Of a DNA stretch of 32,206 nt, positions 1,849 through 26,756 are shown one piece after another. A program made the translations under genes and the position numbers. Numbering within the stretch: the stretch's first letter is position 1; each line of letters starts with the position of its first letter. The notes under the pieces were generated by a model that saw only the letters and a list, made by a program, of their open reading frames with translations, did no database searches and was not told where the DNA came from. The stretch comes from Nostoc sp. LPT (GTDB lineage Bacteria > Cyanobacteriota > Cyanobacteriia > Cyanobacteriales > Nostocaceae). The stretch lies in the NCBI RefSeq assembly GCF_017115165.1, contig NZ_JABXKF010000042.1, positions 1-32,206 of the forward strand. Direction: 5' to 3'.

Positions 1849-1854
1849 TCGATT

Positions 1855-8864: not shown

Positions 8865-10007
8865 TCACACCATTTTTTGACAAACTTTTTTTAGCAGGCT
8901 TCGGAGATAATCGATAATCTGCTGAGAAGACAGATGGCTCATGCAAGGATGGTCTAGCACGAGACACGACTTATTGCTAAAACTATGCTCTTGACACAAG
9001 GTACATTTGAAAGTTGAAAACGCTATATGTACGTGAGATTGTCTTGGTTTCCACAAGTGTATTGGACTGGCTCCATCGCCATCAACATCATTGCCGAAGA
9101 TAGCAATTGTCTGGCATCCCATCGCAGCTGCAATATGTAATGGCCCTGCATCTACTGAAATGAAAGCTTTGGTTTGAAGAAATGCGCCTGCCAATTCTAA
9201 CAGAGATGTCTGACCTCTGAGATCAATCAAAGCAGTAGTTTGTAATAACTCGTCTTCTATAGAACCTGCATTGTACAGCGTTTTCTGTATCTTCGGCGCA
9301 CTGCCCACTAAACCGACACTCAGTCCTTGTGCCATACACCAATGAATCGCTTGCTGCCAAGCGTGAATCGGCCAGAGCTTGGCAGGTCGGGTGGCTGTCA
9401 CATGAATTAGCACATCGGGTACAGGAAAATTAGGTTCTTGACTGGGCAGTTCTAACTTGAAAAAGTCGGTTTCAACATAGGCTAAACGACAGAAGATTTC
9501 CCCAATGTAGTTGCTCTGAATCACGCCTTGATGCCTTTCGACCAATTTAGAACTATTCCAATCTCGATCCTGGAGCAGGCTTTGAATTGAATTCGCATTT
9601 TCACCTCCATCTAGCTTTTTCTGAAAGTCTTGTGTCAAAGCCGCTCCTGTGACATACAGGGGACGTAGGGCAGTTGTCATCACTAGGTTGATGGGGCTGA
9701 ATTCATCACAATTAATCGCTAAATCGTAAGAGCCTGCAACTTGTTGCCGTTGATGCACTACTTGCGCTAACTGCGCTAAGATATCATCGCGATCGCTATA
9801 CAGAGAAAAGCGCCAATCAATGTAGGGACAATAAAGTTCAAAATCTTGGGTTACGTCACTGCCAAAAAAATCCAACGTGCAATCTGGATATTTTTCTTTC
9901 AGGCCTCGCAGCAAGGGGGTAATTACTACATAATTGCCAACTTTGCTGGAGCCAAATACGGCAAGATGGGGATGTGGGCGTAAGGATTGATCGACAAAGA
10001 CTTGCAT
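8865..10007 (-). CDS. Glycosyltransferase family 9 (heptosyltransferase-like)
   Basis: This is a 380-aa GT-B-fold glycosyltransferase. The N-terminal half has the acceptor-side pattern FGSSKVGNYVVITPLLRGLK, and the C-terminal nucleotide-sugar side has the family hallmark SVDAGPLHIAAAMGCQTIAIFG. GT9 enzymes transfer heptose or related sugars from nucleotide donors; the sugar and acceptor here are unknown. It is the last gene of the minus-strand NRPS/glycosyltransferase locus and is followed by IS debris. A 92%-identical copy of about 180 bp of its C-terminal half lies at 12841-13020. Start ATG 10007 lacks a clear ribosome-binding site. Confidence 0.88.
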   Translation of the reverse strand: MQVFVDQSLRPHPHLAVFGSSKVGNYVVITPLLRGLKEKYPDCTLDFFGSDVTQDFELYCPYIDWRFSLYSDRDDILAQLAQVVHQRQQVAGSYDLAINCDEFSPINLVMTTALRPLYVTGAALTQDFQKKLDGGENANSIQSLLQDRDWNSSKLVERHQGVIQSNYIGEIFCRLAYVETDFFKLELPSQEPNFPVPDVLIHVTATRPAKLWPIHAWQQAIHWCMAQGLSVGLVGSAPKIQKTLYNAGSIEDELLQTTALIDLRGQTSLLELAGAFLQTKAFISVDAGPLHIAAAMGCQTIAIFGNDVDGDGASPIHLWKPRQSHVHIAFSTFKCTLCQEHSFSNKSCLVLDHPCMSHLSSQQIIDYLRSLLKKVCQKMV

Positions 10008-10126
10008 ATCACGAATTTTTTACAAATTTTTTAAGTTATTTTTAGATGATGTCTGACAACGACTTTCCAAATATTCTCTTAGTACAGCTTTGCGTAAAAT
10101 CGTGGCGAATTGAGGGTTGAAATTTA

Positions 10127-10168
10127 AACGCAAAGGTTCGCAAAGGTAAACGCAAAGGGGCGCAGAGA
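10127..10168. repeat. Tandem CGCAAAGG repeats
   Basis: Three CGCAAAGG-starting units (10129, 10139, 10151) of 10-12 bp are followed by CGCAGAGA. The array lies in the 199-bp gap between the two GT9 genes. Repeats of this sequence are common between cyanobacterial genes. No function is evident. Confidence 0.75.
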
Positions 10169-10175
10169 ATTGCCT

Positions 10176-10215
10176 ACGAATTAATAAAATGTTGTACTTA
10201 GTTTTATCAATTCGT
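10176..10215 (-). terminator. Hairpin at the 3' end of the second GT9 gene
   Basis: ACGAATTAATAAAA (10176-10189) and TTTTATCAATTCGT (10202-10215) form a 14-bp stem with one mismatch and a 12-nt loop. The right arm contains the last codons and stop of the minus-strand gene ending at 10207. It may terminate or stabilise that transcript; there is no distinct U tract after it. Confidence 0.5.
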
Positions 10216-11184
10216 GATTAGTTTACTAAGTCGATTAAAGGAGTTGAGTTGTTCAAGAATGAATTCCAAGCAGTCTTCAAGGACTTCCTTCTTTTTCTCA
10301 CCAAGAATAACTAAATTCTGATTTTGAGGATAAGACCATCGACGCAGATGAGCAATACTAAATCCTTCTTGTTTCTCTTCTTCTAAAGAAGCTTTTCTCA
10401 CAGCATCCCATAAAACCAGTGTTGGTTTCGCAAATGCAGTAGCAATATGAGAAGGGCCAGTATCAAATCCTACATATAAATCGCTTGCCCAAATCAGAGC
10501 CATTGCTTGTCTAATAGTTGTTTTTGGTGTAAAGATAGAAAACGTCTTTTGCTCAAAGTCATTATTGCCAATATGTAAAAAACTTACTTTATTTTTCAAG
10601 TAATCGACTAATTCTAGCGAGTTATCTAAGTGCCAAGGTGAGTCTTTAGTACTCGATGAAGTCCCATAGGGACAGATACAAACAACGGGACGTTTGAGGT
10701 GAGCAAGAGTCTTTAATCCCCACTGCATTTCTGCGTGAGATAAAAATAAAGAACCCCTTAATTGACGAGGGCGCAGTCCATGAGCAAAACAGATATTTTC
10801 TATGATATGACGGCTTTGACAAAAATTATCTGACTCAACGGACACTTCTAGCATAATGTTCGGGTCTATGTCATCGGCATTGATAATTGTCTCAATATAT
10901 GGATTGTTATCCCAGATTGCATACCCGTTTTCTTGAGCTTTTTTATAATAGTTTAAAGGAGCAGTCAATACTTTTATAAGTCGCCCTTTATTTAAAGATA
11001 ATGCTTCAACTAATGGTGTATAACATACACAGCTTCCTATTCCAAGATAACTAGGTATTGCCAAGTCACAGTCATACTTTTCAGTATAATATTTCGATGC
11101 TGCTAATGGTTCTGAATCTCGAAATCGTGGATAGAAGATAGATTGATCTGTAATGCTGTTATTAAACATATTTGGTTTTTCCAT
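10207..11184 (-). CDS. Glycosyltransferase family 9-type protein
   Basis: This protein of about 325 aa has the GT9 donor-site signature (YVGFDTGPSHIATAFAKPTLVLWD) and the preceding VCICPYGTSSSTKDSPWHL strand-loop pattern. It also has a GIGSCVCYTPLVEAL motif equivalent to the GT9 N-terminal glycine loop. The role is transfer of an unknown sugar. I chose ATG 11184 because GAAG lies nine bases upstream; a TTG at 11199 would add five residues, and ATG 11169 is also possible. It is separated from the GT4 gene upstream by about 440 bp, so it may have its own promoter. It is only distantly similar to the other GT9 gene in this locus. Confidence 0.82.
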   Translation of the reverse strand: MEKPNMFNNSITDQSIFYPRFRDSEPLAASKYYTEKYDCDLAIPSYLGIGSCVCYTPLVEALSLNKGRLIKVLTAPLNYYKKAQENGYAIWDNNPYIETIINADDIDPNIMLEVSVESDNFCQSRHIIENICFAHGLRPRQLRGSLFLSHAEMQWGLKTLAHLKRPVVCICPYGTSSSTKDSPWHLDNSLELVDYLKNKVSFLHIGNNDFEQKTFSIFTPKTTIRQAMALIWASDLYVGFDTGPSHIATAFAKPTLVLWDAVRKASLEEEKQEGFSIAHLRRWSYPQNQNLVILGEKKKEVLEDCLEFILEQLNSFNRLSKLITN

Positions 11185-11199
11185 ATTTAGTGTCTTCAA

Positions 11200-11628
11200 T
11201 TTTTAGTAAAAAGGCAGTTTTTCGATTTTACGATCGCAACAATTGAGCCATCTTAAAAGCTACCAATCCACCAAAACACCAGGGCAAACGCATCTAAAGT
11301 ATAAGAATTCTTTAATAATAGGGGTTTTGGCGTTTTTTAATTGAGCCTATTTTTCCGTCAACATCTTTATCCAGCAAGGGTTTCAGAAATTCCGTGCGTT
11401 CGCCCTGGCAATGGCGAAGCAATTTGACTATCACTAATTTTTACTGCTGGTAGGTGCAATATCAGCTTACTTGCTTTGTATACCATTTAGACAGCTAGGG
11501 ATCTGTACCTACAATTAAGTGAAGTTGTATATTTGGCTGTGTTTTAAAGCAGTCAATATAGTCAGCAAGACTCTCTCTGCACCACCAATTACTCTTACCG
11601 GATTTACAAATACTATTTTCATACAGTT
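11200..11628. other. Gene-free spacer between GT4 and GT9 genes
   Basis: I find no supported reading frame here. The stretch 11330-11440 (CATCTTTATCCAGCAAGGG... GTGCGTTCGCCCTGGCAATG) has a more even base composition and could be the end of an old insertion sequence, but I cannot identify a family. The remainder is AT-rich and could carry a promoter for the downstream GT9 genes. Confidence 0.4.
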
Positions 11629-12780
11629 TTAATTACCGATTAATTCTAAATATGATTGAGCAATAATCTGGGTGTGAGTAGACCAAGAATATTTGTGAGC
11701 CTGACTCAAGCGAAGATTGATATCTGGGGCGCTAGTGGGGTTTAGCAATAGCTGTTCTACTGTCTTTACCCAGGCTGAAACATCCGCAGTTGGACAGTAA
11801 ACCACTGCTTCTTGTCCTACCTCACGCAATACAGGAATATCGCTGACAACTGTGATCGCTCCACAGGCTAAGGCTTCAATAACTGGTAATCCAAAGCCTT
11901 CTGCTATACTTGTTAATAATACTGCTGATGCTTGTCGATAAAGTGCTGCTATGGTTGTACGCTGTAAATTTTGTAGGTGAATTATTGACTTTTTAATATT
12001 CAAATGAGCAATTTGTTGCTGTTGGGTTGGTGTCCACTCGCCGCTGACTTTCACAAGTCGTAACTCTGGGTAAATAGCTTGTAACTGAGCAAACACTTGT
12101 AAAAGAGTATCGATGCGCTTGCGCTGAATGCAACTACCAACATGGAGTAGAAAAGGTGCTTTACCTATTTGTTCTCGTATTTGTTGATCGGCAATATTGG
12201 CGTTTTCAGGAGTAATACAAAATTCTGGGGCGAAACCATAGGGAGCATAAACTAAGCGCGATGGTTCCACCAGTTGATAATGCTCAATTTGTTTCCTGAC
12301 TTCTGCGGTTGAATAAAATACAACAGCACATGATTGTAAACCATGCAAAATTCTCCGAGACATGGCTTGATACCAAGCAGGTCGAGGGTCTTTTACTGGC
12401 TCTACCAAAGAGTAAAAAGCATCAATATCGTGACAGTATACCCCTGTACGTTTTGGGGGTAAGACATGGGCTAGATGGGCGTAGGAGTGGTCAGTAACAT
12501 GATATAAATCAAAATCTGCTACCCGTTGGCTGAGGTAACGAGGATAGTCCCAAAATCGATTGAGTAAGCGGTCAGTATTGTAGGTAAAGCGCTTTTTCCC
12601 AAACCAGGGAATTTTTTGACAACGCCATTGAAATGTTGGACGTACCTCTATGGCTTGAATAGATGTAAGATGTTCAGCTTGCAAGTGCTTGAGTAGCATC
12701 TGAGCGCATAAATTCATGCTATGCCAGTTTTCTTCTAGGTAATCACAGACAATCCCTAAGCGCATTTGATTTTTAGTCAA
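11629..12780 (-). CDS. Glycosyltransferase family 4
   Basis: This is a 383-aa GT-B glycosyltransferase. The C-terminal donor domain has LLHVGSCIQRKRIDTLLQVF and the GT4 EX7E region EGFGLPVIEALACGAITVVSD. The N-terminal domain begins RLGIVCDYLEENWHSMNL, a typical acceptor-side strand and loop. It likely transfers a sugar from a nucleotide or lipid-linked donor; the specificity is unknown. The start is a TTG at 12780 rather than the ATG at 12765: AGGAG lies seven bases before the TTG, and the same sequence would be 22 bases from the ATG. It lies between a GT9 remnant upstream and a gene-free spacer downstream. Confidence 0.9.
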   Translation of the reverse strand: MTKNQMRLGIVCDYLEENWHSMNLCAQMLLKHLQAEHLTSIQAIEVRPTFQWRCQKIPWFGKKRFTYNTDRLLNRFWDYPRYLSQRVADFDLYHVTDHSYAHLAHVLPPKRTGVYCHDIDAFYSLVEPVKDPRPAWYQAMSRRILHGLQSCAVVFYSTAEVRKQIEHYQLVEPSRLVYAPYGFAPEFCITPENANIADQQIREQIGKAPFLLHVGSCIQRKRIDTLLQVFAQLQAIYPELRLVKVSGEWTPTQQQQIAHLNIKKSIIHLQNLQRTTIAALYRQASAVLLTSIAEGFGLPVIEALACGAITVVSDIPVLREVGQEAVVYCPTADVSAWVKTVEQLLLNPTSAPDINLRLSQAHKYSWSTHTQIIAQSYLELIGN

Positions 12781-12815
12781 GATCTTGCTCCTCTATGATT
12801 TTCTATCACGGCCAA

Positions 12816-13020
12816 TTAGAAAGGAATAACTGCGTGCAATAGTCCTGCATCCACTGAGATGAAGGCTTTGGTTTGAAGAAATGCGCCTGCTAATTCTAAT
12901 AGAGATGTCCGATCTCTAAGATCAATCAAAGCAGTAGTTTGTAACAACTCGTCCTCTATAGAACCTGCATTGTACAGCGTTTTCTGTATCTTCGGCGCAC
13001 TGCCCACTAAACCGATACTC
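12816..13020 (-). pseudogene. GT9 gene remnant (paralogue of the 8865-10007 gene)
   Basis: The stretch 12841-13020 aligns with 9142-9321 without gaps, with about 14 differences in 180 bp. It encodes the same donor-side segment (GSAPKIQKTLYNAGSIEDEL through SVDAGLLH). Most differences are silent, with only three amino-acid changes (GQ to DR, P to L). The fragment lacks both ends of the gene, and its frame closes at 12816. It probably represents a once functional second GT9 gene lost between the two GT4 genes. The last codons and stop of the upstream GT4 gene lie inside it, in another frame. Confidence 0.8.
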
Positions 13021-14269
13021 TAAGAATTTGCTGGTACAACTGAATGTATCGTTGGGCTTGTACTTCTAACGAGTACTCTTCAACCGCAACCTTGCGGCAA
13101 TTTTGACTCATACGATCGCCTAAATTAACGTCTTCTAATAGTTGGACAATCCCATTACAGAAATCATCAGCATCTTCAGGTTTTGCTAAATAGCCAGTGA
13201 TACCAGGACGGACATAATCTGGAACGCCACCAACATTGAAGGCAACTGTCGGCGTACCACAAGCTGCTGCCTCCAGACCGACTAATCCGCAAACATCAGC
13301 ACGGGTTGGAAACAGAAATAAATCGGCGGCAGAATAGGCAATGGCTTTTAAGCGATCGCTGCTGATATAGCCAAGGTGCAGTACTTCTATTTCTGCGGCA
13401 TTTGAGATTGCCTTCGCTTCATCCCCAAAAGTCAGCAACACGGTTTCAGCTTTGAGCGATTTAGGTATGCGAGAAAGGGCTTTGAGCAATAAATCGCCAC
13501 CTTTACGCCGATTGGTCATGTCTTGTGCTCCAAATATGAGAACTTTTTTATGCTGGGGAATTCCCAAGTCAGATTGACACTGCTGTTGATCGAGTGGTTG
13601 ATAGGCTACTGTATCAATTCCGTAGGAAATGTGATGAATGGGGAAACAGTTGAGCATACTCTTTTTAGCGCATTCAGCCAACCAGCGACTAGGAGCCACA
13701 ATCGTTAAGTTGGAGTGTTGATATGCCCAATTCTTTAACTTCCACTCTAGAGATGTGGCATCTCGTTGAATCGGAGGTAACGCATTAGGATAAGGACATT
13801 TTCCACAACCAGTTTGCCATTTTGAACAGTCATAACTGTAGGCACAGTGTCCCGTGAAACTCCACATATCATGTAGCGTGTAGACCGCAGGTTTATCTCT
13901 CGTTAAGGAGGGAAGCATGAGATAGGAAAAATAATCATCATGAAGCAGGTGAAAGTTGAGTAAAGCAGCATTCTGATAACAGGCTTGATGTTTAAGATCA
14001 GCAATTGAGGGATTGGCAACGTAATTCAAACCCATTCGTCTTGTAATTGAGTTCGCTAAATCAACAAACTGATTTTTTCTTTGGACAATCTGTACTGTAT
14101 TTTTAAAATCATTAGCTTTTTCCTGAAACACTCCATTAATCTCATCTTTATAGGCAAAGAAAGATTGAATCCCGGCTCTGGATAAACCTTTATGAATATT
14201 GTGGGCAGCAATAAATGCACCACCTAAGCCAAACCAGTTATTAATATGAAGTATATTGAGAGAATTCAT
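13007..14269 (-). CDS. Glycosyltransferase family 4
   Basis: This is a 420-aa GT-B enzyme. The N-terminal glycine loop is NNWFGLGGAFIAAHNIHKGL, followed by the subfamily block TLHDMWSFTGHCAYSYDCSK with a cysteine-rich QTGCGKCP. The donor domain has GAQDMTNRRKGGDLLLKAL and the loop DVCGLVGLEAAACGTPTVAF. It shares the HDMWxFTGHC pattern with exopolysaccharide and O-antigen glycosyltransferases. Donor and acceptor are unknown. The gene follows the NRPS after 59 bp and is probably co-transcribed. Its last residues (RVSV) and TAG stop come from the adjacent GT9 remnant, so the original 3' end was replaced by a recombination event, with little or no loss of conserved sequence. Confidence 0.9.
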   Translation of the reverse strand: MNSLNILHINNWFGLGGAFIAAHNIHKGLSRAGIQSFFAYKDEINGVFQEKANDFKNTVQIVQRKNQFVDLANSITRRMGLNYVANPSIADLKHQACYQNAALLNFHLLHDDYFSYLMLPSLTRDKPAVYTLHDMWSFTGHCAYSYDCSKWQTGCGKCPYPNALPPIQRDATSLEWKLKNWAYQHSNLTIVAPSRWLAECAKKSMLNCFPIHHISYGIDTVAYQPLDQQQCQSDLGIPQHKKVLIFGAQDMTNRRKGGDLLLKALSRIPKSLKAETVLLTFGDEAKAISNAAEIEVLHLGYISSDRLKAIAYSAADLFLFPTRADVCGLVGLEAAACGTPTVAFNVGGVPDYVRPGITGYLAKPEDADDFCNGIVQLLEDVNLGDRMSQNCRKVAVEEYSLEVQAQRYIQLYQQILRVSV

Positions 14270-14328
14270 TTTACTTCGTCTTTAGTGCCTTGTCTCTTGA
14301 ATATCCAATCTGTTTAACAACTGAAGAT

Positions 14329-16242
14329 TCAATTAGAATCTGAATGTATTGTCTTAAAGAGGTTTGAAACAGTCATTTCTGAATGGCTAACAAGCTTCGT
14401 CAGAATTTCCTGATAGTTATTTAATAGGCGATCGATTGTCTCTGCTGAGAATTTCTCAGTGCCGTATTTAGCCCTGATCCGGATTGTTTTTGATAGTTCA
14501 ACGTAAAGCTCTAATGGGGGTGTTTTGCCATAAAGTTCCATTGGCATATCACCCCATTGTGACGGTGCGATCGCTTCCCAGTCTGGGATTTGATCTTGAA
14601 CCGAGGGGGTCATGGTAATGCTTGCCAGCAGATTCAGGGGACGTAAATGTTGGATCTGCTCGATCACCCGATGCAGCGACACCTCTTTATGTTCGATCGC
14701 TTCATTGACAGTCTCTTGAAGTTGTTTAATGACGGTTGAGCCAGTCTGTTCCGGCAAAATTAGCGATCGCAGAATCACGTCATTGATAAAGCAGCCAATC
14801 ATCCGCTCTGTGTCTGGCCCAGTGCGGTTGCCGAGCGTCGCCAGGATCAAAATCTCATTTTGTTGACTCCACTTCGCTAAAACAAGTTTGAAAGCGCTCA
14901 ACAAGATGACAAAACTCGTCACCCTCTGTGAACGACCCAGCTTTTCAATCGAACTAACCACAGACTCAGGTAAGTTTACAAAACTGTGTCCTGCCTGTTT
15001 ACTAGACAGCATCAGACTTGGAGAAGGGTGTAACTCGTCATCAACGAGTTTGCGTTGCCAATAACTGAGTTGCTGTGCGATCGCGGACTCATTATATACT
15101 TGCTGCTGCCACAAGCAAAAATCTGTATATTGGCATGATAGGGCTGGCAGGGGCGAAGGTTGCCCATTGGCGAAAGCCTGTATCAGTGCCTCTAATTCTT
15201 GCAGAAGCACACCAAATGACCAACCATCTGCGATCAGATGGTGCATGGTAATCACCAGCCAATACTCTTCTGAATTCAGTTGAAATAAGGCAGTTCTGAT
15301 CAGGGGAGCAACAGCCAAGTTGAAGGGCTGCTGACGTACTTTAATTCCCAAACGAACAGCTTCCGACTCCCGCGCCTCTGGGGGTAGGTACTGGAGATTT
15401 TCATAGATTAATGGCAGGTGCAGGTGAGGTAAAACGATCTGCATCGGCTGATCGTTGATGACGGTGAAGACCGTGCGGAGATTCTCATGACGGCGGACGA
15501 TTTCATTCAAACTTTGCTCGACTACCTCTGGTGAGAGAGGACGCCTGACTCGCATCAGAGTCGAACTATTGAGAGTTGCGACCTTAGTATCTGATTGATT
15601 TAGTAACCATAACGCCTGCTGTGATAGCGAGAGAGGCACGGGTGTAAATGGGCTTCTCTCCAAGGGAGACATGGCTTTATTTGAACTGAGTGTTGGATGG
15701 GCTTTGAACGATTCAATTAACTTGCTGAGGGCGGCGATCGTCGGGTTTTCAAACAGACACCGCAGGGGAAAATCAATCGCAAAGGCTTGGCGAATTTGGA
15801 ACAGAAGTGAGGTTGCCAGCAGAGAATGTCCGCCCAAATCAAAAAAGTTATCATAAATCCCGACTTTCTCAATCCTGAGAATCGCAGCCCAAAGGTTAGC
15901 TAAAATTTCTTGGGTGGGGGTGCTAGGTGCTACGAAGCTAGATTCTAGTCCAATCTTGAATTCCGGTATGGGTAGAGCGCGACTATCAACTTTTCCATTG
16001 GACGTTAAGGGAAACTTTTCTAGGACAACAAAGGCAGATGGAATCATGTACTCAGGCAGTTTTTTCTGGAGATAGTAGCGAAGGTCTTGAATATATGTCT
16101 CTAAACTGCTCCAAGTCGATTGGCGATTGCCTAAACTATTCGATCCCGTTTCTTGAGGAAAACGCTGCTTTATTGTTGTCCGTCTCGCGTAAATATTATA
16201 GAGGGGGGTTGCTTCTAGTAATTTGTCCTGAACAATGGTCAA
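14329..16242 (-). CDS. NRPS C-terminal part: methyltransferase end, A9-A10, T, C
   Basis: This 637-aa frame begins in the last 25 residues of an FkbM-type methyltransferase (LLEATPLYNIYARR). It then has adenylation motifs A9 (LPEYMIPSAF) and A10 (LTSNGKVD, Lys84), a carrier domain with the phosphopantetheine Ser140 in DNFFDLGGHS, and a complete condensation domain (HHLIADG, His334-His335, Asp339). It ends soon after the C domain, with no thioesterase or reductase. The only possible start is a TTG at 16242 without a ribosome-binding site. The frame in fact continues upstream without any shift, through a TAG at 16321-16323, into the methyltransferase. It is best read as the 3' third of the interrupted NRPS gene. 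Confidence 0.85.
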   Translation of the reverse strand: MTIVQDKLLEATPLYNIYARRTTIKQRFPQETGSNSLGNRQSTWSSLETYIQDLRYYLQKKLPEYMIPSAFVVLEKFPLTSNGKVDSRALPIPEFKIGLESSFVAPSTPTQEILANLWAAILRIEKVGIYDNFFDLGGHSLLATSLLFQIRQAFAIDFPLRCLFENPTIAALSKLIESFKAHPTLSSNKAMSPLERSPFTPVPLSLSQQALWLLNQSDTKVATLNSSTLMRVRRPLSPEVVEQSLNEIVRRHENLRTVFTVINDQPMQIVLPHLHLPLIYENLQYLPPEARESEAVRLGIKVRQQPFNLAVAPLIRTALFQLNSEEYWLVITMHHLIADGWSFGVLLQELEALIQAFANGQPSPLPALSCQYTDFCLWQQQVYNESAIAQQLSYWQRKLVDDELHPSPSLMLSSKQAGHSFVNLPESVVSSIEKLGRSQRVTSFVILLSAFKLVLAKWSQQNEILILATLGNRTGPDTERMIGCFINDVILRSLILPEQTGSTVIKQLQETVNEAIEHKEVSLHRVIEQIQHLRPLNLLASITMTPSVQDQIPDWEAIAPSQWGDMPMELYGKTPPLELYVELSKTIRIRAKYGTEKFSAETIDRLLNNYQEILTKLVSHSEMTVSNLFKTIHSDSN

Positions 16243-16320
16243 ATCATATCCATGAGATTTAAGTAACTCCGTAATTTCAGTCAGTCTGCCATTAATATCA
16301 TGAACCTCAACAATAATTTG

Positions 16321-16650
16321 CTAGATTTTTAACCAATCTCTTTCTTTAATTCCTGCTAATACATCCCGTTCACTTTTTTCCACATCAATTTTGAGTAAAT
16401 CAATCCGCTCAATTTTATTTTCTTCAATGATATAAGAAATGGTTTTTACCTGACAGGTAAATTGCTCACTTTGCAAACGTTCAACTAATAATTCATCCAG
16501 TACTTCCTGTGATACAGTTGTCCCATTGCCTGTTACTGCTTGTTGCTTGAGCAAGAAGGATTTGACGACTTCTTTTTCCTCAAATGCGTCAGCAAAGCGT
16601 CCAGAAATGACGGAAACATTGGGATAATAAGTAAATTCAGCAGATTTAGT
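16321..16650 (-). pseudogene. Middle of the FkbM methyltransferase domain between two stops
   Basis: This open stretch lies between the TAA and TAG codons and encodes TKSAEFTYYPNVSVISGRFA through ERIDLLKIDVEKSERDVLAG and RDWLKI. The DLLKIDVEKSE segment is the hallmark of the FkbM methyltransferase fold. It is in frame with the sequence on both sides. The first possible start inside it is a TTG at 16554 without a ribosome-binding site, so independent translation is doubtful. Confidence 0.75.
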
Positions 16651-19600
16651 TTACCCAGAAAGACCAATGTTAAAGACTTTGGCATCGAGATTGTAAAGTT
16701 CTGCATTCAAGCGTAACAATTCAAAGACAGGGGGAATAGGTTCAAAAGCATAGATTTTTACCTTTGGGCAAGCTTGAGCAGCAAATAAACTAAACAAACC
16801 GATATTCGCCCCGACATCAAAAATGCAGTCCCCTTCATCAAGGGTAATTCCATGTTGTAAATAGGATTGCTCGGTAAATATTTCTTGATAAAGAAATTCT
16901 GTTTCCGTTTTATTGAGATGAGCGATCATCATCCCATTGGGTAACTCATAGAGAGAGCGATCGCTCAGTATACCCTGCTCTTTTAAACTCACCAAATTGA
17001 GAATGGTTGAAGCTTGGATATGGTCAGGAACAATATAGGCTACCAATCGCTTATTATTAGGTTCATCCTCTCTGGCAAGTACAACACATTCTTGCACACC
17101 TTGATGCCCAGAAAGTAGTGCTTTAATTTCTCCTAACTCAATCCGAAAGCCCCGAATTTTGACTTGATGATCGATGCGTCCTTTATACTCAAGCTCACCT
17201 GTAGGCAAATATCGCGCTAAATCTCCCGTTTTGTATAAACGCCCTTGCTGCTGATTGCTAAAGGGATTGGGTACAAACCGCTCCTGGGTCAGTTCACTGC
17301 GCCGCCAATATCCCCTCGCTACACCACCACCGCCAACATAAAGTTCTCCTACCACCCCAATGGGTACAGGTTGTTGGTATTTGTCCAGCAGGTAAATCTG
17401 TAAGTCGGAAATTGGCTGCCCAATTAAGCTACTAGTGGCTTTGACATCAGCTAAAGTTAAACGACGGATTGTCACATGAACCGTTGTTTCTGTAATGCCG
17501 TACATATTTACTAACTGGGGCAGTTGATCCCCATGCCGCTCAAACCAAGGCTGCAACAAAGGTAACGAGAGTGCTTCTCCGCCAAATATCACTACCCGTA
17601 AACTCAATTTTTCTGTTGTCTTGGAGTGTTCATCAACTTGAATTAGTTGGTAAAAAGCGGATGGAGTTTGGTTGAGAACAGTCACTTGTTCAGCAATCAG
17701 TAAGTTGTAGAATGCTTGCGAGTCTCGGCTCACCTCGTAAGGCACAACCACAACACACCCGCCATACAGCAACCCTCCCCACAGTTCCCAAACCGAAAAG
17801 TCAAATGCAAACGAATGGAATAGCGTCCATACATCCGTTTCATTGAACTGATAGCAACTTTCCGTAGCTTTAAATAACCGAACGACATTCTGATGAGTGA
17901 TTAATACCCCTTTGGGCTTTCCTGTAGAGCCGGATGTATAAATCATGTACGCTAGGTTATCACTCTGCACACCACTGACTAGGTTATTTCCGGGGTACTG
18001 AGCAATTTTGTCTGCCTCTTCATCTAAACAGACAACAAAATTGCTCTGATCTAAAGTGTTGCGTAATTGCGAATTCGTTACCAACACTTGCACTTGTGCA
18101 TCTTCTAGTATGTGGTTCAACCGTTCTTGCGGATTACTGGGGTCTAGTGGTATATATGCCCCTCCGGCTTTGAGTATTCCCAATATGCCCACGATCATTT
18201 CTAGTGAACGTTCTACACAAATGCCTACTAATGTTTCTGGTTTTACACCCAGAGTTTGCAAGTGATACGCTATTTTGTTAGCCTGCTGATTCAATTCCCG
18301 ATAAGTCAGCTGTTGCCCTGCAAACTTAAGTGCTACAGCTTCGGGTGTCTTCTCCACCTGTGCTTCAAACAACTCATGCAAACACAGAAACTCAGACTCA
18401 ATCTCCTGTATTTCTTTCCCTAGCAACTGCTCCCTTTCTGTAACGCTGAGTATTGACAAATTGCCGATACACTGATCTGGAGATTCAACAATTCTTGCTA
18501 GCAAAGTCTGAAAATGTCCACTGCTGCGCTGGATTATTTCTTCATTAAACAGATAGGCGTTGTACTCTAGTTTCCCTTGCAGTTGTGAGTTTGTTTCCCA
18601 CAAATTTAAGGTTAAATCAAAGGTTGCTCCGGCTGTTGGTTTATTCAACTCCAGTACTGTTGTCATAACTCCTGCGAGTTGCAATTCCTCCTGAGTGATA
18701 GTTTCTAGAGTGAACATCACTTGCAAAAGGGAATTATTACCTGATTTGCGATCTATTTTCAGAGCTTCAATAACTTTAACAAAGGGAACCTCACTATGAG
18801 CATACGCTTCTAAAACAACCTTTTGTACTTCAGTTAACAGTTCTCGAAAGGTAGGATTATCAGGAATCTGAATACGTAAACCCAGTGTATTGACAAAAGC
18901 ACCAATAAGTGGATTTGTCTGCACTGAGGTGCGATTAGCAATCACAGTTCCGACAATTAAATCCTCCTGATGAGTGTAGCGGGAAAGTAAGATGGCGAAA
19001 GCAGTCAAGAGGGTGGTAAAAAACGTTGTCCCAGACTGTTGACTTAACTGCTTTAACTTGTAAGTCACCTCAGTACTCACAGACAACGGAACTATACCAG
19101 ATTGAAACGCTTGCTTTGTATTATGATTGCGCTCGCCGCTTAAGTAGGGTAGTTCCAAAATAGGCACAACGTCTGCCAACTTTTGCTGCCAGTAGTTTAA
19201 TTGTTGGTGAAATTTCTCCAGAGCGATCTGTTGATTTTGCCAATGAGCAAAATCAGCATATTGAATCGGGAGTTCTGGTAAAGAAGCTATTTTTCCTGTT
19301 GAAACTTCTTGATACAGAGCTGATAATTCCCGCAAAAATACCTGAATTGACCAATCATCACAAATAATGTGGTGCAGATTGAACATCAACAAGTGAATGT
19401 GAGGAAGAAGACGGATTAAAGTCACTCGCCACACAGGAGACTGATTCAAATCAAAAGCACGGGTACGCTCTTGCAAAAGAAGTTGTTGTGCTTGAGAAAT
19501 GCGCTCAGTTTCTGATAAGTTCTGCAAGTCAATTACAGGAATCTCAAAGTTCAGGTGAGGTGTAATCACCTGTCCTGGCGAACCATCCACCACCTTAAAC

Positions 19601-19992
19601 CCAGTCCTTAGAATGGAATGACGCTCAATTAGACATTGGATTGCTCGCTCGAAGCTGGGAATATCCAGATCCCCTTCCAAGCGAAACGCCCTCACCATGT
19701 TGTAGATATAATTTGACTCTTCTAGGTGATGAAGTAGCCAAAACTGTTGTTGAGTCAAGGACAAAGGCAGATCATTTTTTATAGTTGCATCAACAGGTTT
19801 AATGGTTGATTGTGACTCAAGTACTGATTGATTTAGGAATGCTAAAATTTCTGTTTTGTGTGTTTTTATTTGAGCCAGTATATCTGAAGTTAGAATACCT
19901 TTAGGTGCTTGATAGCGGAGATTGTTGCCATCAGCCCAGATTTTGATATTGAGGCGACCAAGTTCTAACAACAGTTCATCAAGCGTTTTCAT
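16651..19992 (-). CDS. NRPS N-terminal part: TubC docking, C, A (Thr), start of methyltransferase
   Basis: This 1113-aa frame starts with a TubC-type docking domain (1-52, LGRLNIKIWADGNNLRYQAP). A condensation domain follows (about 75-520, catalytic HHIICDD, His207-His208, Asp212), then an adenylation domain (about 540-990) with A3 YTSGSTGKPKG and A8 KIRGFRIELGEI. The specificity residues read D731, F732, W735, N774, I802, G804, M830, V838, H839; with the A10 lysine this is DFWNIGMVHK, the established threonine code. From about 993 an FkbM-type methyltransferase begins (CIFDVGANIGLFSLF, the SAM-binding loop, then YAFEP), cut by TAA at 16651. The ATG overlaps the stop of the upstream A-T gene (ATGA), which indicates translational coupling. 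Confidence 0.88.
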   Translation of the reverse strand: MKTLDELLLELGRLNIKIWADGNNLRYQAPKGILTSDILAQIKTHKTEILAFLNQSVLESQSTIKPVDATIKNDLPLSLTQQQFWLLHHLEESNYIYNMVRAFRLEGDLDIPSFERAIQCLIERHSILRTGFKVVDGSPGQVITPHLNFEIPVIDLQNLSETERISQAQQLLLQERTRAFDLNQSPVWRVTLIRLLPHIHLLMFNLHHIICDDWSIQVFLRELSALYQEVSTGKIASLPELPIQYADFAHWQNQQIALEKFHQQLNYWQQKLADVVPILELPYLSGERNHNTKQAFQSGIVPLSVSTEVTYKLKQLSQQSGTTFFTTLLTAFAILLSRYTHQEDLIVGTVIANRTSVQTNPLIGAFVNTLGLRIQIPDNPTFRELLTEVQKVVLEAYAHSEVPFVKVIEALKIDRKSGNNSLLQVMFTLETITQEELQLAGVMTTVLELNKPTAGATFDLTLNLWETNSQLQGKLEYNAYLFNEEIIQRSSGHFQTLLARIVESPDQCIGNLSILSVTEREQLLGKEIQEIESEFLCLHELFEAQVEKTPEAVALKFAGQQLTYRELNQQANKIAYHLQTLGVKPETLVGICVERSLEMIVGILGILKAGGAYIPLDPSNPQERLNHILEDAQVQVLVTNSQLRNTLDQSNFVVCLDEEADKIAQYPGNNLVSGVQSDNLAYMIYTSGSTGKPKGVLITHQNVVRLFKATESCYQFNETDVWTLFHSFAFDFSVWELWGGLLYGGCVVVVPYEVSRDSQAFYNLLIAEQVTVLNQTPSAFYQLIQVDEHSKTTEKLSLRVVIFGGEALSLPLLQPWFERHGDQLPQLVNMYGITETTVHVTIRRLTLADVKATSSLIGQPISDLQIYLLDKYQQPVPIGVVGELYVGGGGVARGYWRRSELTQERFVPNPFSNQQQGRLYKTGDLARYLPTGELEYKGRIDHQVKIRGFRIELGEIKALLSGHQGVQECVVLAREDEPNNKRLVAYIVPDHIQASTILNLVSLKEQGILSDRSLYELPNGMMIAHLNKTETEFLYQEIFTEQSYLQHGITLDEGDCIFDVGANIGLFSLFAAQACPKVKIYAFEPIPPVFELLRLNAELYNLDAKVFNIGLSG

Positions 19993-21923
19993 AGCATCCC
20001 TTCATCATAATCATCTGTGCTATCAGGCACTTCCTTTTGTACTAATATCCGACAAGTGTTTTCAATACGTTTGGCTAGTTGAGCGATCGTTGGTAATTCA
20101 AATACAGTAATTAAAGGAATATTTATTGAGAAAGTGTTAAATAATTGGGCAATCAGTTGATTAACAAGTAGGGAATGACCCCCTAATTCAAAAAAGTTAT
20201 CATGAATCCCAATTTCTTCTATTCCAAGAATTTGAGTCCAGATGTCAACCAGTATTTGCTCAGTAGAAGTGCGAGGCAAAACTAAATTTTCTGACGGCGC
20301 TCTTTGCGCCTGACTGAAAGCGGGTAAACCCAAACGATCAACTTTGCCATTGGGCGTTAGGGGAAGCGCTTCTAAAGTCATAAAAGTTGAGGGAACCATG
20401 TAGTCTGGTAGGCTTTCTAAGAGCAGACTTCGTAGTTCTCGGAGTGAGAGTGCTTGTTGAGGAGCCGGCACAATATACGCTCTTAGATGTTGCTCACCCA
20501 GATGATCGGGTGATTCTACGACAGCAGCCTCTCGGATAAGGTTGGTATTAATCAATGCCATTTCGACTTCCGAAATGTCGATGCGGTAGCCCCTGACTTT
20601 CACCTGGAAGTCTTTTCTGCCTAAGTGCAAAAGGCAGCCATCTGGCAACATACAGCCTAAGTCGCCCGTTTTATACAGTAGTTTATTTTCTTGTTGTACA
20701 TCTTTTAAGAGTACTGCTTCGGTCAAGTCTGGTTTTTGCCAATAACCACAAAACAGATAACGACTTCTAACTACGATTTCACCAATCTGATTAAACTCAA
20801 CTGGTTGATCCTGTTCATCAACTAACAAAACCTCATGATCCTCAACTGCGTAGCCAGCTGGTACAGTACTGCCAAGAATTTCCGTTTCCTGATCAACAAA
20901 GTACTGCCGAATTGGGCTAATTTCTGAACCTCCCAAATTGGCAACAAAAATACAGTCATTAGAGAAATGCTGCTTGAAAAGTTCTACATCTTTTTTGTAG
21001 ACTGTCTCACTTCCTACCTGAATCAGGCGCAGTTTGGGGAACTTCTCCTGTTGAGTTAAGGTGTTGACAAAATGGCGAAACATAGTCGCCACGGCAAAAA
21101 AGATGGTTATTTCTTGCTGGTTCAGCCAGTTACTTAAACCTATTAACCCTTCTTGTTTAACGTCATACGGCAGAAGAGTTGCACCATTGAGCAAGGAGCA
21201 GAAGATATCCCTGACAGCACCAGCAAAATTTGGGGAGTATAAAAGCGCTAGCCTGTCATTGGCACAAATATGACCACTGTTGGTATAGTTCATCGTCAAA
21301 TGCAGAACATAACGATGGTTTTGGATTACGCCTTTGGGCTGCCCTGTTGATCCAGAGGTATAAATGATGTAGGCAAAATTATCTGGTTGCAGAGGTAAAT
21401 CTAGATTTTCACAAGAAATGCTGGAATCTATCTCATCAATATTGAGTATTTCTAAGCCGCTGATTTGCAATTTTTTGGCAAATGAGATATTTTTGCTATC
21501 TGTTAGCAATAAACCTGCTTGTGAATCTTTGAGAATATAGTTAATTCTTGCTTGTGGCAGCGAGGTATCTAGTGGTACATAAAACTTACCAACTTTCAAT
21601 ACACCCAGAATTGCAGCAATTATCGAAGCACCACTTTCAAATAATATTGCAATCGGTTCTGCTTGGCGATCGCCTTCGGCGCAGCGAAGCTGAACGCGCT
21701 TGATTAAGATAGCCCTGGCTATCCGATTGGCGAACTGATTCAGGGCATTATATGTGAACACATACTCCCTAGTCTTAACAGCAATCTGTTCAGGATGCAG
21801 ATGTACTTGTTTTTGAAAGCGCTCAGGAACCGATAGTTCAACATCTTTCTTGTCGAACTTTACAAAGGGGTTATTTGGGTGGACATGATGTCTCTGAATT
21901 AACTGTTGCAACGGGTTATTCAT
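19989..21923 (-). CDS. Stand-alone NRPS adenylation-carrier (A-T) protein, non-canonical pocket
   Basis: This 644-aa protein has an adenylation domain (A3 YTSGSTGQPKG about 189-199, A8 KVRGYRIDISEVE, A10 LTPNGKVD with Lys527) and a carrier domain (DNFFELGGHS, Ser584). It would activate a carboxylic acid as an adenylate and load it on its own pantetheine arm. The A4 core reads NFAGAVRDIF, so the position of the alpha-amino-binding Asp235 is Ala234, and the A5 core is NLGGSE rather than YGPTE. A hydroxy, keto, aryl or other non-alpha-amino acid substrate is therefore likely. Residues 77-88 (VQLRCAEGDRQA) appear to be encoded by an inserted palindromic repeat. The tail DSTDDYDEGML is acidic and could dock to the TubC domain of the next protein. 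Confidence 0.88.
   Translation of the reverse strand: MNNPLQQLIQRHHVHPNNPFVKFDKKDVELSVPERFQKQVHLHPEQIAVKTREYVFTYNALNQFANRIARAILIKRVQLRCAEGDRQAEPIAILFESGASIIAAILGVLKVGKFYVPLDTSLPQARINYILKDSQAGLLLTDSKNISFAKKLQISGLEILNIDEIDSSISCENLDLPLQPDNFAYIIYTSGSTGQPKGVIQNHRYVLHLTMNYTNSGHICANDRLALLYSPNFAGAVRDIFCSLLNGATLLPYDVKQEGLIGLSNWLNQQEITIFFAVATMFRHFVNTLTQQEKFPKLRLIQVGSETVYKKDVELFKQHFSNDCIFVANLGGSEISPIRQYFVDQETEILGSTVPAGYAVEDHEVLLVDEQDQPVEFNQIGEIVVRSRYLFCGYWQKPDLTEAVLLKDVQQENKLLYKTGDLGCMLPDGCLLHLGRKDFQVKVRGYRIDISEVEMALINTNLIREAAVVESPDHLGEQHLRAYIVPAPQQALSLRELRSLLLESLPDYMVPSTFMTLEALPLTPNGKVDRLGLPAFSQAQRAPSENLVLPRTSTEQILVDIWTQILGIEEIGIHDNFFELGGHSLLVNQLIAQLFNTFSINIPLITVFELPTIAQLAKRIENTCRILVQKEVPDSTDDYDEGML
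21665..21689. repeat. HIP1 plus palindromic repeat inserted in the A-domain coding sequence
   Basis: GGCGATCGCC (21665-21674) abuts the imperfect palindrome CTTCGGCGCAGCGAAG (21674-21689), a combination typical of Nostoc interspersed palindromes. It encodes an arginine-rich stretch between the conserved NRIARAIL helix and the EPIAILFESG strand, where related adenylation domains have a short loop. The frame is preserved. Confidence 0.55.
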
Positions 21924-21964
21924 CGTTGATTTTCATGATTAGAGCTATTTAATTTTTCTTAGTG

Positions 21965-22954
21965 TTAATGACTCACTGTCCTCAAATTCTGCAAGGATTT
22001 AAGTCTACTGTTCAAAGTTAGTTGCACAGGATCAATAATTTCCAATTCTGATAAGAACCCCTTCACTTGCTTAAAAGTGCTAGTTTTCAACCATTCCAGC
22101 AAGTAGGGAATTTCGCTACATCCAGCGATAATGCAGTCAACAGTAGGCTGGAGCTTGAGTAGCTCAACGAAAAAATGTTCACCGACTTGACAAGCAAAAT
22201 TGTAGTCAGATGTTTTTACTCCTTGATAAATAGATTGCATTAATATTGATTGCAACTGATCATTAGGTTCTAAGCAAACAATACTCACTTCTTGAAGAGG
22301 TCGAGAGTAAACACACCCTAACCGCGTTGCTGTAGTACAGAGAATTAAAGGCTGACAAAAGTTTCGTTGTTGCAAGTACTGTATTGTAGTGTCAATCAAA
22401 GAGATCCATTGCAGTCTGAAAAAAATCTTTGAATAATCAAGCAGGAGTTGCTGCATCACTTCAGGTAAGAAATAATGAGCGCCATTGCACAGAACGATCA
22501 ACTCAACAGGTTCAACACTAGAGCAAATGTACTGCATCGCTTCTCGGATAGCGATCGCCAGCATTACCACCAAATCCGGCTCTTGAGATGCACCAATTTG
22601 AATCTTTTGTTGAATGGCTGTAGTCCGATTAGGCAGCGAACAAGCTTGAAACAGAACAATTTCTCTACTATTGTGGAACATCTGACAGGCTATCTCAAAA
22701 GCTCCCAAACCAGCTAGAGGCCCCATTCCACCCAATAGTAGTAAAGGAGGCGCTTGAGTCTGTTTTGGTTTCAGTACAATCACTTCATTGGGGTAACTTT
22801 GATCCTCAACAGCTTCTGAACGTAGCTTTTTGTTTTGAGCGATCGCACACAGATGTTGTCGAAAATCTAAAGTTGCAGCAATAGCTTGTTGAGCATCGTT
22901 AAAAAAATGTTGCGCTTGAGGTTTAAGGCACGGATAGCAGATGTTTTGCTGCAT
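21965..22954 (-). CDS. Aspartate/glutamate racemase-family protein
   Basis: This 329-aa protein has the family start loop LLGGMGPLAGLGAFE (about 74-88) and both expected catalytic cysteines: Cys156 in VLCNGAHYF and Cys279 in IAGCSEIPYLL. These PLP-independent enzymes interconvert L- and D-Asp or Glu by a two-base mechanism. The usual CNTAH reads CNGAH here, which may affect specificity. The first 65 residues are not part of the core fold. The gene overlaps the end of the upstream diiron gene by 32 bp and precedes the A-T gene by 41 bp, so it likely supplies a D-amino acid to the pathway, by analogy with racemases in cyanobacterial peptide clusters such as McyF. A related PLP-independent activity is possible. 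Confidence 0.82.
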   Translation of the reverse strand: MQQNICYPCLKPQAQHFFNDAQQAIAATLDFRQHLCAIAQNKKLRSEAVEDQSYPNEVIVLKPKQTQAPPLLLLGGMGPLAGLGAFEIACQMFHNSREIVLFQACSLPNRTTAIQQKIQIGASQEPDLVVMLAIAIREAMQYICSSVEPVELIVLCNGAHYFLPEVMQQLLLDYSKIFFRLQWISLIDTTIQYLQQRNFCQPLILCTTATRLGCVYSRPLQEVSIVCLEPNDQLQSILMQSIYQGVKTSDYNFACQVGEHFFVELLKLQPTVDCIIAGCSEIPYLLEWLKTSTFKQVKGFLSELEIIDPVQLTLNSRLKSLQNLRTVSH

Positions 22955-23861
22955 TTATTTCTTGTCTCATCTCTATAGTTAGTGCTTCCATTACAGTACC
23001 TAACCGAGTCAGGTACTCCTTAAACAAAAGTTTTGCTTGTGTATAGTCAATTGGAGTATTAGTAGCTTCGCTGTACTCATTCAAGGCTTTGACGACCACT
23101 TGAAAGTGAGCCACTTCCGTTTCATCTGCAACATGAACACCGATATAGAACAGAGCTTTTTCTTTTTCTTCAGGGGAGAAGTGGTAATATTTGTCAATTA
23201 ATTCTGAAACAGCAAATAAGGCTCGCGTATACTCACCGTGGTTGTAAATTTCTGAGAACATATTTGTGAGTAAACCTTTGGAAATATCATCTACCACCAT
23301 GTTGTGATATATCCATTTCTGAAAATCACGCGCTTGGGGTAAACAATATTCTTCTAATTGCCAAGGATAATTGCCTAAAAAGCTGTTAGCAAAATCTTCA
23401 TAGAGTGCAGCGTGAGTTACACCTTCGTAGTCTAATCCCAAATCTTCGTGACTAGTTTCAGCATTGAAGGCACTAGCTAACATTAATTGTTCCCGTTCTT
23501 GAGTATCTCTGCTTAAAGCAAGACGTTGTAAACGGCAACATAGGCCATATATAGCTAACATTTTCAAGTGTGTAGCTTTCCAGGAATAAAAGAATGTAGC
23601 TAGCATTTTGCTTGACCAGCAATGAGTAGGTAACAGCTCAAAAAAGTTTTCACAATGTTGAAGTGGCTCACTAGCTTCCAAAAAACTCTGACTCAAAGCC
23701 TGTTGCAACTTTTCGTCAGAAACCATGTTGATGATACTGGTAATCGTGCTGATAATGCTGGATGTTGACGCGATCATAAATATAATATAGATGTTAAAGG
23801 TTAAAAACTCCCTTTTCGCCAGGAAGATTGTATCAATCTTTTTCAAGCTAATATTGGGCAT
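22923..23861 (-). CDS. Haem-oxygenase-like diiron (HDO) iron-containing redox enzyme
   Basis: This is an all-helical protein with likely metal ligands in AFNAETSHEDLGLDYEGVTH (Glu135, His138 or Glu139, His150) and GVHVADETEVAHF (His243, Asp246, His252). The pattern fits iron-containing redox enzymes of the haem-oxygenase-like fold, whose members perform oxidative decarboxylation, C-C cleavage or N-oxidation of amino-acid-derived substrates. It is the first gene of the NRPS operon and overlaps the racemase gene by 32 bp. The start is uncertain: ATG 23861 gives 312 aa with an odd hydrophobic leader (residues 19-45), while ATG 23777 and ATG 23726 (MVSDEKLQQAL) are possible. The last fits the family's usual length best. 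None has a clear ribosome-binding site. The reaction is not predictable. Confidence 0.7.
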   Translation of the reverse strand: MPNISLKKIDTIFLAKREFLTFNIYIIFMIASTSSIISTITSIINMVSDEKLQQALSQSFLEASEPLQHCENFFELLPTHCWSSKMLATFFYSWKATHLKMLAIYGLCCRLQRLALSRDTQEREQLMLASAFNAETSHEDLGLDYEGVTHAALYEDFANSFLGNYPWQLEEYCLPQARDFQKWIYHNMVVDDISKGLLTNMFSEIYNHGEYTRALFAVSELIDKYYHFSPEEKEKALFYIGVHVADETEVAHFQVVVKALNEYSEATNTPIDYTQAKLLFKEYLTRLGTVMEALTIEMRQEINAAKHLLSVP

Positions 23862-24328: not shown

Positions 24329-25252
24329 ATGATTGCCCAAGAAATTATCAAACGCTATGCAGCTAAGGAAAGAGATTTTCAACACCTGAATTTAAGCCAG
24401 ATTTATTTGCAGGGTGTTGATTTTAGTGGTGTTGATTTTAGCTATGCTAACCTCAGTAGTGCCAATCTCAGTGAGGCTAACTTAAGTTATGCCACCCTGG
24501 TTTGGACAGATTTAAATCGAGCAGACTTCCAAAAAGCCAATTTGCAAAACGCAAACTTGTTAAATGTGAGTCTACTGTGGGCAAACTTAAGTTACGCTAA
24601 TCTAACTAGAGTAAACTTAACCAATGCTCACTTAAATTATGCCAAGCTTGATTCTGTCTGCTTACGAGAGGCAAATTTAACAGATACTGATTTAGAAAAT
24701 GCTTGTTTGACTCAAGCAGACTTAACTGGGGCAAATTTGTTTAAAGCAAGTCTCAAAGCCACAGATTGCACTGGCGCTAAGTTTGATGATGCTAATCTTC
24801 GCCAATCCAACTGGGAAGGGGCGATTTTATGTGCTGCTTCTTTACAACGAGTTGATTTGGAACGAGCGCAATTACAGGATACTATTTTAAAGGGAGCCGA
24901 CTTAACAGAATCAGATTTAATTAAAGCGGACTTGAGTAGTGCAGATTTGAGTGATGCAATTTTACGTCAAGCTGCCTTGGAGTTAGCCTGTTTATTTAAT
25001 GCAGACTTGAGTCGTGCTAATTTAAAGTTAGCTTCTTTATTTAACGCCAACTTAGAGGAGGCGGTTCTAAATGGGGCAAATTTGAGTGATAGTGATTTAA
25101 GACATGCAAATTTCACAAATACCCAATTAGATGAGGTAAATTTTTCCGGTTCTCGCGTTAAGGGAGCGCTATTTACTGATGCTATTGGGTTAACCCCTCA
25201 ACAAAAGCAATGGTTGAGGAAAAATGGAGCATTAAATATTTCTGATTTGTAG
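24329..25252 (+). CDS. Pentapeptide-repeat protein
   Basis: This 307-aa protein consists almost entirely of tandem A(D/N)LXX pentapeptides (for example YANLSSANLSEANLSYATLV) from about residue 25 to 295, expected to form a right-handed quadrilateral beta helix. A short N-terminal helix (MIAQEIIKRYAAKERDF) and a C-terminal LTPQQKQWLRKNG tail cap it. No signal peptide, membrane segment or second domain is visible, so it is probably cytosolic. Cyanobacteria carry many such proteins, most without known function. It has the opposite orientation to the NRPS operon and shares its intergenic region. Confidence 0.93.
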   Translation: MIAQEIIKRYAAKERDFQHLNLSQIYLQGVDFSGVDFSYANLSSANLSEANLSYATLVWTDLNRADFQKANLQNANLLNVSLLWANLSYANLTRVNLTNAHLNYAKLDSVCLREANLTDTDLENACLTQADLTGANLFKASLKATDCTGAKFDDANLRQSNWEGAILCAASLQRVDLERAQLQDTILKGADLTESDLIKADLSSADLSDAILRQAALELACLFNADLSRANLKLASLFNANLEEAVLNGANLSDSDLRHANFTNTQLDEVNFSGSRVKGALFTDAIGLTPQQKQWLRKNGALNISDL

Positions 25253-25381
25253 AAAGAATTTCACGTATGCGTCAAGAGAGGCGCAAAGAAGAGAAACAAG
25301 AGAAATATTTAGTGTTCACAAACAATTTAGAATTGCTGTATTAGGAAATGGAGCTTTAAATACCTTTAGTTTTGAACAGAG

Positions 25382-26740: not shown

Positions 26741-26756
26741 TAAACAAGATCACAAA

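What the first reader, a model, noticed from the sequence alone, without database searches (positions are those of the whole stretch)
8865..23861. Unrecognised NRPS/diiron/racemase/glycosyltransferase locus
A same-strand run encodes an HDO-type diiron protein, an Asp/Glu racemase, an A-T loader, a TubC-C-A-MT-T-C synthetase, two GT4 and two GT9 enzymes. I do not recognise this combination as a known pathway. The gene overlaps (32 bp between the diiron and racemase genes, 4 bp between the two NRPS genes) show the first four act together. It suggests a small acyl- or hydroxyacyl-threonine-derived product that is oxidised and glycosylated. With no thioesterase and a terminal condensation domain, release may occur by condensation onto an external amine or alcohol.
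Basis: partly seen in the sequence, partly recalled or inferred. Interest (0 to 1): 0.72.

Follow-up and report, generated by a model that had tools for sequence, protein, structure and literature searches.

The report
Conserved NRPS starter cassette, broken here
This Nostoc locus carries a conserved three-gene cassette (a predicted diiron oxidase, an aspartate-racemase-like enzyme and a loading enzyme) that likely makes an unusual acidic starter for a small, probably sugar-decorated threonine peptide, and in this strain the second peptide synthetase gene is interrupted by two stop codons.

The parts
22923..23777 (-). HDO-fold gene (predicted diiron oxidase/oxygenase), conserved start; the listed ORF begins at 23861
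21965..22954 (-). Asp/Glu-racemase-like gene, 32-bp overlap with the HDO gene
   Evidence: aspartate racemase 1JFL E 5e-12 with both Cys aligned; Cys kept in 12 of 12 loci; below curated cut-offs
19989..21923 (-). A-T loader with non-canonical pocket (Ala235, Gly236, Arg239, Phe278)
   Evidence: 235/236/239 numbering after gramicidin synthetase is recalled
16651..19992 (-). TubC-C-A (threonine-type code) and the first part of an FkbM-type methyltransferase, ends at a stop
16651..16653 (-). in-frame TAA inside the methyltransferase
16321..16323 (-). in-frame TAG inside the methyltransferase
14329..16242 (-). T and terminal C domain, cut off from C-A by the stops; listed frame opens on TTG
13007..14269 (-). 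GT4a glycosyltransferase, conserved with the cluster in 5 of 6 Nostoc carriers
10207..11199 (-). GT9a glycosyltransferase, in exactly the 6 Nostoc genomes (of 53) with a full-length HDO
8865..10007 (-). GT9b glycosyltransferase, in the same 6 Nostoc genomes plus a broken remnant in G415
11629..12780 (-). GT4b glycosyltransferase; inside the run but not shared by the other carriers, so not counted as part of the pathway

Best explanation
The locus is an NRPS cluster whose conserved HDO, racemase-like and A-T genes likely make and load an aspartate-derived starter with no basic amine, which would be joined to threonine, released onto a free amine by a terminal condensation domain and then probably glycosylated. 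Shown: gene order and its conservation, the HDO fold, the two racemase cysteines, the loader pocket (no Asp235, Arg239), the threonine-type second A domain, the recurrent terminal C domain, the co-occurrence of GT4a, GT9a and GT9b in Nostoc, and the two stop codons. Inferred: the racemase-like enzyme inverts aspartate or a close acid; the HDO oxidises it so that its amine is lost or masked; Arg239 holds the second carboxylate while the other is activated; an FkbM-type domain O-methylates threonine where it survives; the terminal C domain couples a small, perhaps agmatine-like amine; the glycosyltransferases add sugars. In this strain the stops separate C-A from T-C, so the line as sequenced would probably not work.
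For: Of 16 HDO-positive genomes among 388, 12 have the loader and 10 a full racemase-like gene beside it. 32-bp overlap in 9 of 12. P0162 has a racemase domain fused ahead of a loader with Arg239. HDO fold. Racemase cysteines 12 of 12. Loader pocket 14 of 14. Threonine-type code in all six FkbM-bearing modules looked at. Terminal C at the C-terminus in 98 of 121, also in P0157 and P0144, where the line is fused to an Arg239 loader. Release onto a free amine is proposed for suomilides (PMC13122637 section 8). GT9a in exactly the 6 of 53 Nostoc genomes with full-length HDO.
Against: No reaction was tested. The racemase scores below its curated cut-offs, so the substrate is open. The HDO metal ligands could not all be assigned; an alpha-1 histidine is missing in most homologues. 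4 of 16 HDO genomes lack a loader beside it (G313, G352, G104 without either neighbour; G178's contig ends) and G091 and G297 have only an HDO remnant and no racemase. G265 kept the cluster although its racemase body is deleted. GT co-occurrence can come from linkage alone; outside Nostoc it rests mostly on GT9a remnants, and only G332's lies in the cluster. No gene for an amine supplier was identified.
Confidence: 0.45

Rival explanations
1. The HDO is an N-oxygenase (like SznF, HrmI or RohS) that turns the amine of a free amino acid into an N-hydroxy, oxime or nitro group; the loader lacks Asp235 because that amine is no longer basic. The acid need not be aspartate.
Against: UndA, CADD and PolF, which do other chemistry, match as well, so the fold does not choose; Arg239 and an Asp/Glu-racemase-like partner point to a diacid.
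Confidence: 0.3
2. The glycosyltransferases belong to a neighbouring cell-surface glycan locus and only travel with the NRPS genes by linkage; the peptide is not glycosylated.
For: GT9 and GT4 families are common in glycan loci; the carriers also share other flanking genes, 24329-30968; G016 has GT9a without an HDO match; G417 has a GT4b relative without HDO.
Against: GT9a and GT9b are found full-length only in the six HDO carriers among 53 Nostoc genomes; they still follow the synthetases in S13, where the assembly line is much longer; the flanking genes, unlike the GTs, persist in G398, which has only an HDO remnant.
Confidence: 0.2
3. The terminal C domain does not release the chain but hands it to an A-T protein encoded elsewhere, so the product is longer than starter-threonine-amine.
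For: C domains at protein ends are frequent in related cyanobacterial proteins of unknown product.
Against: No protein starting with an A domain follows in the window or in the G240, G265 and G356 loci.
Confidence: 0.25
4. In this strain the locus is a relic: the two stops end the pathway, and what is conserved here is only recent inheritance.
For: Two stops in the methyltransferase, a duplicated GT9b fragment, a GT4 remnant near 11500-11630; decayed copies elsewhere (G398, G091, G297, G185, G265).
Against: The frame is otherwise open for 1,888 codons and dN/dS in T-C (0.27-0.31 for window pairs) lies within the range of the other pairs (0.11-0.35). This concerns the strain, not the family.
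Confidence: 0.6

Closest known systems
Heme-oxygenase-like dimetal oxidases (UndA, HrmI, CADD, BesC, PolF, SznF, MboA)
   Same: Fold; H215-x3-E219-x4-H224 has the spacing of MboA's alpha-3 ligands H172, D176, H181 (PMC13185094 passages)
   Different: No sequence match in Pfam, NCBIfam or PDB; substrate unknown; alpha-1 histidine not assignable
Aspartate racemase (1JFL) / Asp-Glu racemase family
   Same: Both catalytic cysteines and the LGGMGP motif
   Different: About 70 extra N-terminal residues and scores below curated cut-offs
Aeruginosin / suomilide (bsl) clusters of cyanobacteria
   Same: Small linear peptide lines with non-amino-acid starters, release onto an agmatine-derived amine and glycosylation (PMC10143770 passages; PMC13122637 section 8)
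   Different: Different starter loading (KR- or FkbH-type), Choi or Abn core; no HDO-racemase-loader cassette is described in the text read
E-64 (fungal cp1/cp2) and Microcoleus mfa pathway
   Same: A diacid starter, then an amino acid, then an amine, as proposed here (PMC12568646 passages)
   Different: NRPS-independent: Fe/alpha-ketoglutarate oxygenase, ATP-grasp and amide synthetase; none of these was found among the window genes
Miraziridine A (sponge peptide with aziridine-2,3-dicarboxylate)
   Same: Possible starter; biosynthetic origin described as elusive (PMC3280575 and PMC13096860 passages)
   Different: No gene cluster known to compare; no product known for the locus
Iso-linked acidic modules of microcystin synthetase
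   Same: Arg239 and an Asp/Glu racemase in the pathway (both recalled, not fetched or tested)
   Different: Those keep Asp235 (recalled); the 14 loaders here do not have it

Membership tests
HDO superfamily | heme-oxygenase-like helical fold | tested here: met
HDO superfamily | three-histidine/three-carboxylate ligand set | tested here: inconclusive
   H215, E219 (Glu/Asp in 45 of 46), H224 match by spacing; E111, E176, E182 are invariant; position 110 is His in 12 and Tyr in 34 of 46; no coordinates available
HDO superfamily | O2-dependent oxidation by a diiron centre | not testable with these tools
   needs purified enzyme
Asp/Glu racemases | two catalytic cysteines | tested here: met
   12 of 12 loci; aligned to 1JFL
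Asp/Glu racemases | score above curated family cut-off | tested here: not met
   Pfam 22.4 vs 31 bits; TIGR00035 60.4 vs 93.1 bits; hence only 'racemase-like'
NRPS assembly line | A, T and C domains | tested here: met
NRPS assembly line | intact reading frame of the second synthetase in this strain | tested here: not met
   two stops
Aeruginosin / suomilide family | Choi or Abn biosynthesis genes in the cluster | tested here: inconclusive
   no such genes named among the 19 window proteins scanned with Pfam; AerD/E/F profiles were not run
E-64 / mfa pathway | Fe/alpha-ketoglutarate oxygenase, ATP-grasp ligase and amide synthetase | tested here: not met
   none among the 19 window proteins scanned
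Miraziridine-type aziridine peptides | aziridine-2,3-dicarboxylate in the product | not testable with these tools
   needs mass spectrometry or an enzyme assay

The most novel reading that the evidence does not exclude
The cassette is the missing bacterial route to aziridine-2,3-dicarboxylate (or a like diacid warhead): the racemase-like enzyme supplies D-aspartate, the HDO closes a C-N bond on it as PolF does on isoleucine, the Arg239 loader activates one carboxylate, and swappable release domains (reductase, thioesterase, terminal C) turn it into a family of E-64- and miraziridine-like, in Nostoc glycosylated, protease inhibitors.
Probability: 0.18. Interest if true: 0.88.

Novelty: new variant of a known kind. 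Interest (0 to 1): 0.62.

Why it matters
The cassette marks a family of cyanobacterial assembly lines by its starter rather than by its product. It pairs the HDO enzyme class, known for rare chemistry, with a loading domain whose pocket is unlike that of an amino-acid activator. If the starter is an aspartate-derived electrophile, it would give a route to a protease-inhibitor warhead whose origin is described as elusive. Decayed copies (this strain, G265, G398) are natural knock-outs for linking genes to compounds.

Tried and rejected
HDO as a known family by sequence: no Pfam or NCBIfam hit and only two chance-level PDB hits (E 0.92-0.93); only the fold search placed it. C-domain typing by nearest solved structures: both C domains hit ordinary condensation domains (Txo1/Txo2, tyrocidine synthetase 3); no subtype assigned. 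Relaxed selection after the stops: pairwise dN/dS gave no clear signal. Operon ends: promoter- and terminator-like sites at chance level (35 found, 36.2 expected; 12 found, 12.8 expected). Loader positions 299 and 301 were dropped because the alignments placed them one column apart. The 26 database loaders were picked from the 120 listed of 6408 by a pattern that contains the Arg, so their Arg239 and Gly236 are by construction; 25 of them were read (P0149 dropped, no A3 motif found). The 14 loaders were picked by synteny. One search lists the best 120 of 1560. Five GT9a genomes with E 4e-4 to 1e-3 were left out of 'strong hits'. G160 was left out of the overlap count because its HDO frame is broken. 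The chance figures ignore kinship.

Papers: searches (HDO or diiron + racemase + NRPS + cyanobacteria wording) gave 0 papers; others gave lists. Seen: abstract, section list and passages of PMC13108848; passages of PMC13185094, PMC12614342, PMC3280575, PMC13096860, PMC12568646, PMC10143770 and PMC3765200; section 8 and passages of PMC13122637. The others only as listings. 'Not found in print' is claimed only for those searches in this open-licence library.
Full report
What is there. The window is the whole 32,206-base contig C126 of an 8.6-Mb genome; its close relatives are named Nostoc. On the minus strand, in order of reading: an HDO-fold gene (conserved start 23777), a racemase-like gene (22954-21965), an A-T gene (21923-19989), a TubC-C-A frame (19992-16651), a T-C frame (16242-14329), GT4a (14269-13007), GT4b (12780-11629), GT9a (11199-10207) and GT9b (10007-8865). 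The frame is otherwise open. Three proteins of 1,903-1,911 aa keep the same domains unbroken: P0246 and P0247, named Nostoc, and P0249, unnamed (P0246 scanned again). G265, G240 and G356 lack the methyltransferase by a clean in-frame absence of about 254 codons and are open. So the stops are unusual among the relatives seen. Reads would be needed to exclude an assembly error.

The cassette. Among 388 genomes of the order, 16 have an HDO match, fragments included. Beside it, 12 have the loader and 10 a full racemase-like gene. G265 has only the first 68 racemase residues, fused to the loader. G178's contig ends before a loader could appear; G091 and G297 keep an HDO remnant and a loader but no racemase; G313, G352 and G104 (a 40-residue match) show neither neighbour in the stretches read. 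HDO and racemase genes overlap by exactly 32 bp in 9 of 12 loci and by 29, 41 or 62 bp in the other three. P0162, of unnamed origin, carries a racemase domain (44.9 bits, above Pfam's cut-off of 31) fused ahead of a loader with Ser235, Ala236, Arg239 and Phe278: close to, not the same as, the cyanobacterial pocket. These results make HDO, racemase-like enzyme and loader one functional unit with good confidence.

The assembly lines differ downstream. Second A domains read DFWNIGMVHK (threonine-type, recalled) in the window, S13, P0127, P0136, P0157 and P0167 and look alike in G042 and G091. All six FkbM-bearing modules looked at are of this type (window, S13, P0127, P0136, P0167, G091; the codes of P0246, P0247 and P0249 were not read), which points to O-methylthreonine. 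Others carry DAFFLGVTFK (P0153; isoleucine in PMC13122637) or DALWMGGTFK-like codes, some followed by A domains with Glu239 (recalled as typical of basic residues). Ends differ too: reductase in G042 and G332 and P0123; a PKS and then C-A-T-TE in S13 and G188; a terminal C domain in the short Nostoc lines, P0157 and P0144. In 98 of 121 proteins (the 120 listed of 1560, plus P0144) the best match to the terminal C domain ends within 60 residues of the C-terminus. Release onto a free guanidine amine is proposed for suomilides and aeruginosides (PMC13122637 section 8), and I adopt that logic. Those clusters are otherwise different.

Glycosyltransferases. Among 53 Nostoc genomes GT9a occurs in exactly the six with a full-length HDO, GT9b in the same six plus a broken remnant in G415, and GT4a at 91% or more in five of the six. 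Two sets of six in 53 coincide by chance with probability 4e-8 if genomes were independent, which they are not, and one linked island inherited whole would give the same pattern. Against that, the flanking genes persist in G398, which has only an HDO remnant and no GT9a or GT9b match, and in S13 the same genes still follow a far longer synthetase block. Outside the genus, 3 of 4 strong GT9a genomes are HDO genomes (G297, G332, G352; not G016; chance about 1e-4, same caveat). This is weak: the G332 and G352 matches are remnants of 76 and 70 residues, G297's HDO is itself a remnant, and only G332's lies in the cluster, downstream on the same strand. GT4b is not matched in the other five carriers and its best relative is in G417, which has no HDO; it is left out.

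Mechanism. My commitment: the racemase-like enzyme and the HDO convert aspartate or a close acid into a diacid starter without a basic amine; A-T loads it; C-A-T adds threonine (O-methylated where FkbM persists); the terminal C domain transfers the chain to a small amine; glycosyltransferases finish the molecule. Order and parts are shown; every chemical step is inferred. In this strain the split of C-A from T-C would probably stop the line. dN/dS shows no long relaxation, so the loss is recent or, less likely, the pieces still work. Decay is common in this family: G398 keeps 69 HDO codons between conserved flanks, G265 has lost the racemase body, G185's HDO is split, G091 and G297 keep HDO remnants.

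Novelty. The parts are known kinds; the cassette and its link with an Arg239 loader were not found in the papers searched. The boldest reading, an aziridine- or epoxide-like diacid warhead, rests on the loader pocket, on C-N bond formation by the HDO PolF (PMC12614342, passages) and on the unexplained origin of miraziridine A. It is a lead, not a result. Cyanobacteria also have another route to epoxysuccinate (MfaA of Microcoleus, PMC12568646), which speaks against needing this one.

Noticed in passing
window 1776-3170: A tRNA-Phe gene (1776-1848) followed by an integrase gene broken into two frames (2035-2349 and 2583-3170), as at the edge of a decayed mobile element.
   Followed up: partly
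window 24329-30968: A pentapeptide-repeat, AAA_35 and TPS-secretion gene trio on the other strand is kept beside the cluster in window, G240, G265, G356 and S13, and persists in G398, where only an HDO remnant is left.
   Followed up: partly
window 11300-13020: Between GT4a and GT9a lie a 186-bp copy of part of GT9b, GT4b and a broken GT4 frame: a small rearranged patch not seen in relatives.
   Followed up: partly
L023 (G265; position and contig length as Nostoc sp. UHCC 0926 plasmid pn1): The cluster sits on a 1.04-Mb plasmid; its racemase gene is cut to 68 residues and fused to the loader.
   Followed up: partly
L026 9839-10576 and L029 15049-15786: G240 and G356 have a separate 245-aa methyltransferase between the synthetase and GT4a, absent from the window and G265; both lack the built-in FkbM domain.
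   Followed up: partly
L054 and L055 (G426, S13): A much longer hybrid line (NRPS-PKS-NRPS-TE) sits between the same starter cassette and the same glycosyltransferases.
   Followed up: yes
window 31055-32074: A gene with OAA-family lectin sugar-binding domains; related pieces lie near the cluster in G240, G265, L021 and G398.
   Followed up: no
window 1-55: The contig begins with about eight perfect copies of the heptamer AATGACC.
   Followed up: no
L080 14899-15735 (Azospirillum sp. B510 plasmid pAB510c): A 33% relative of the HDO beside methyltransferase and MFS genes, with no NRPS gene in the stretch: the HDO family is wider than the cassette.
   Followed up: partly
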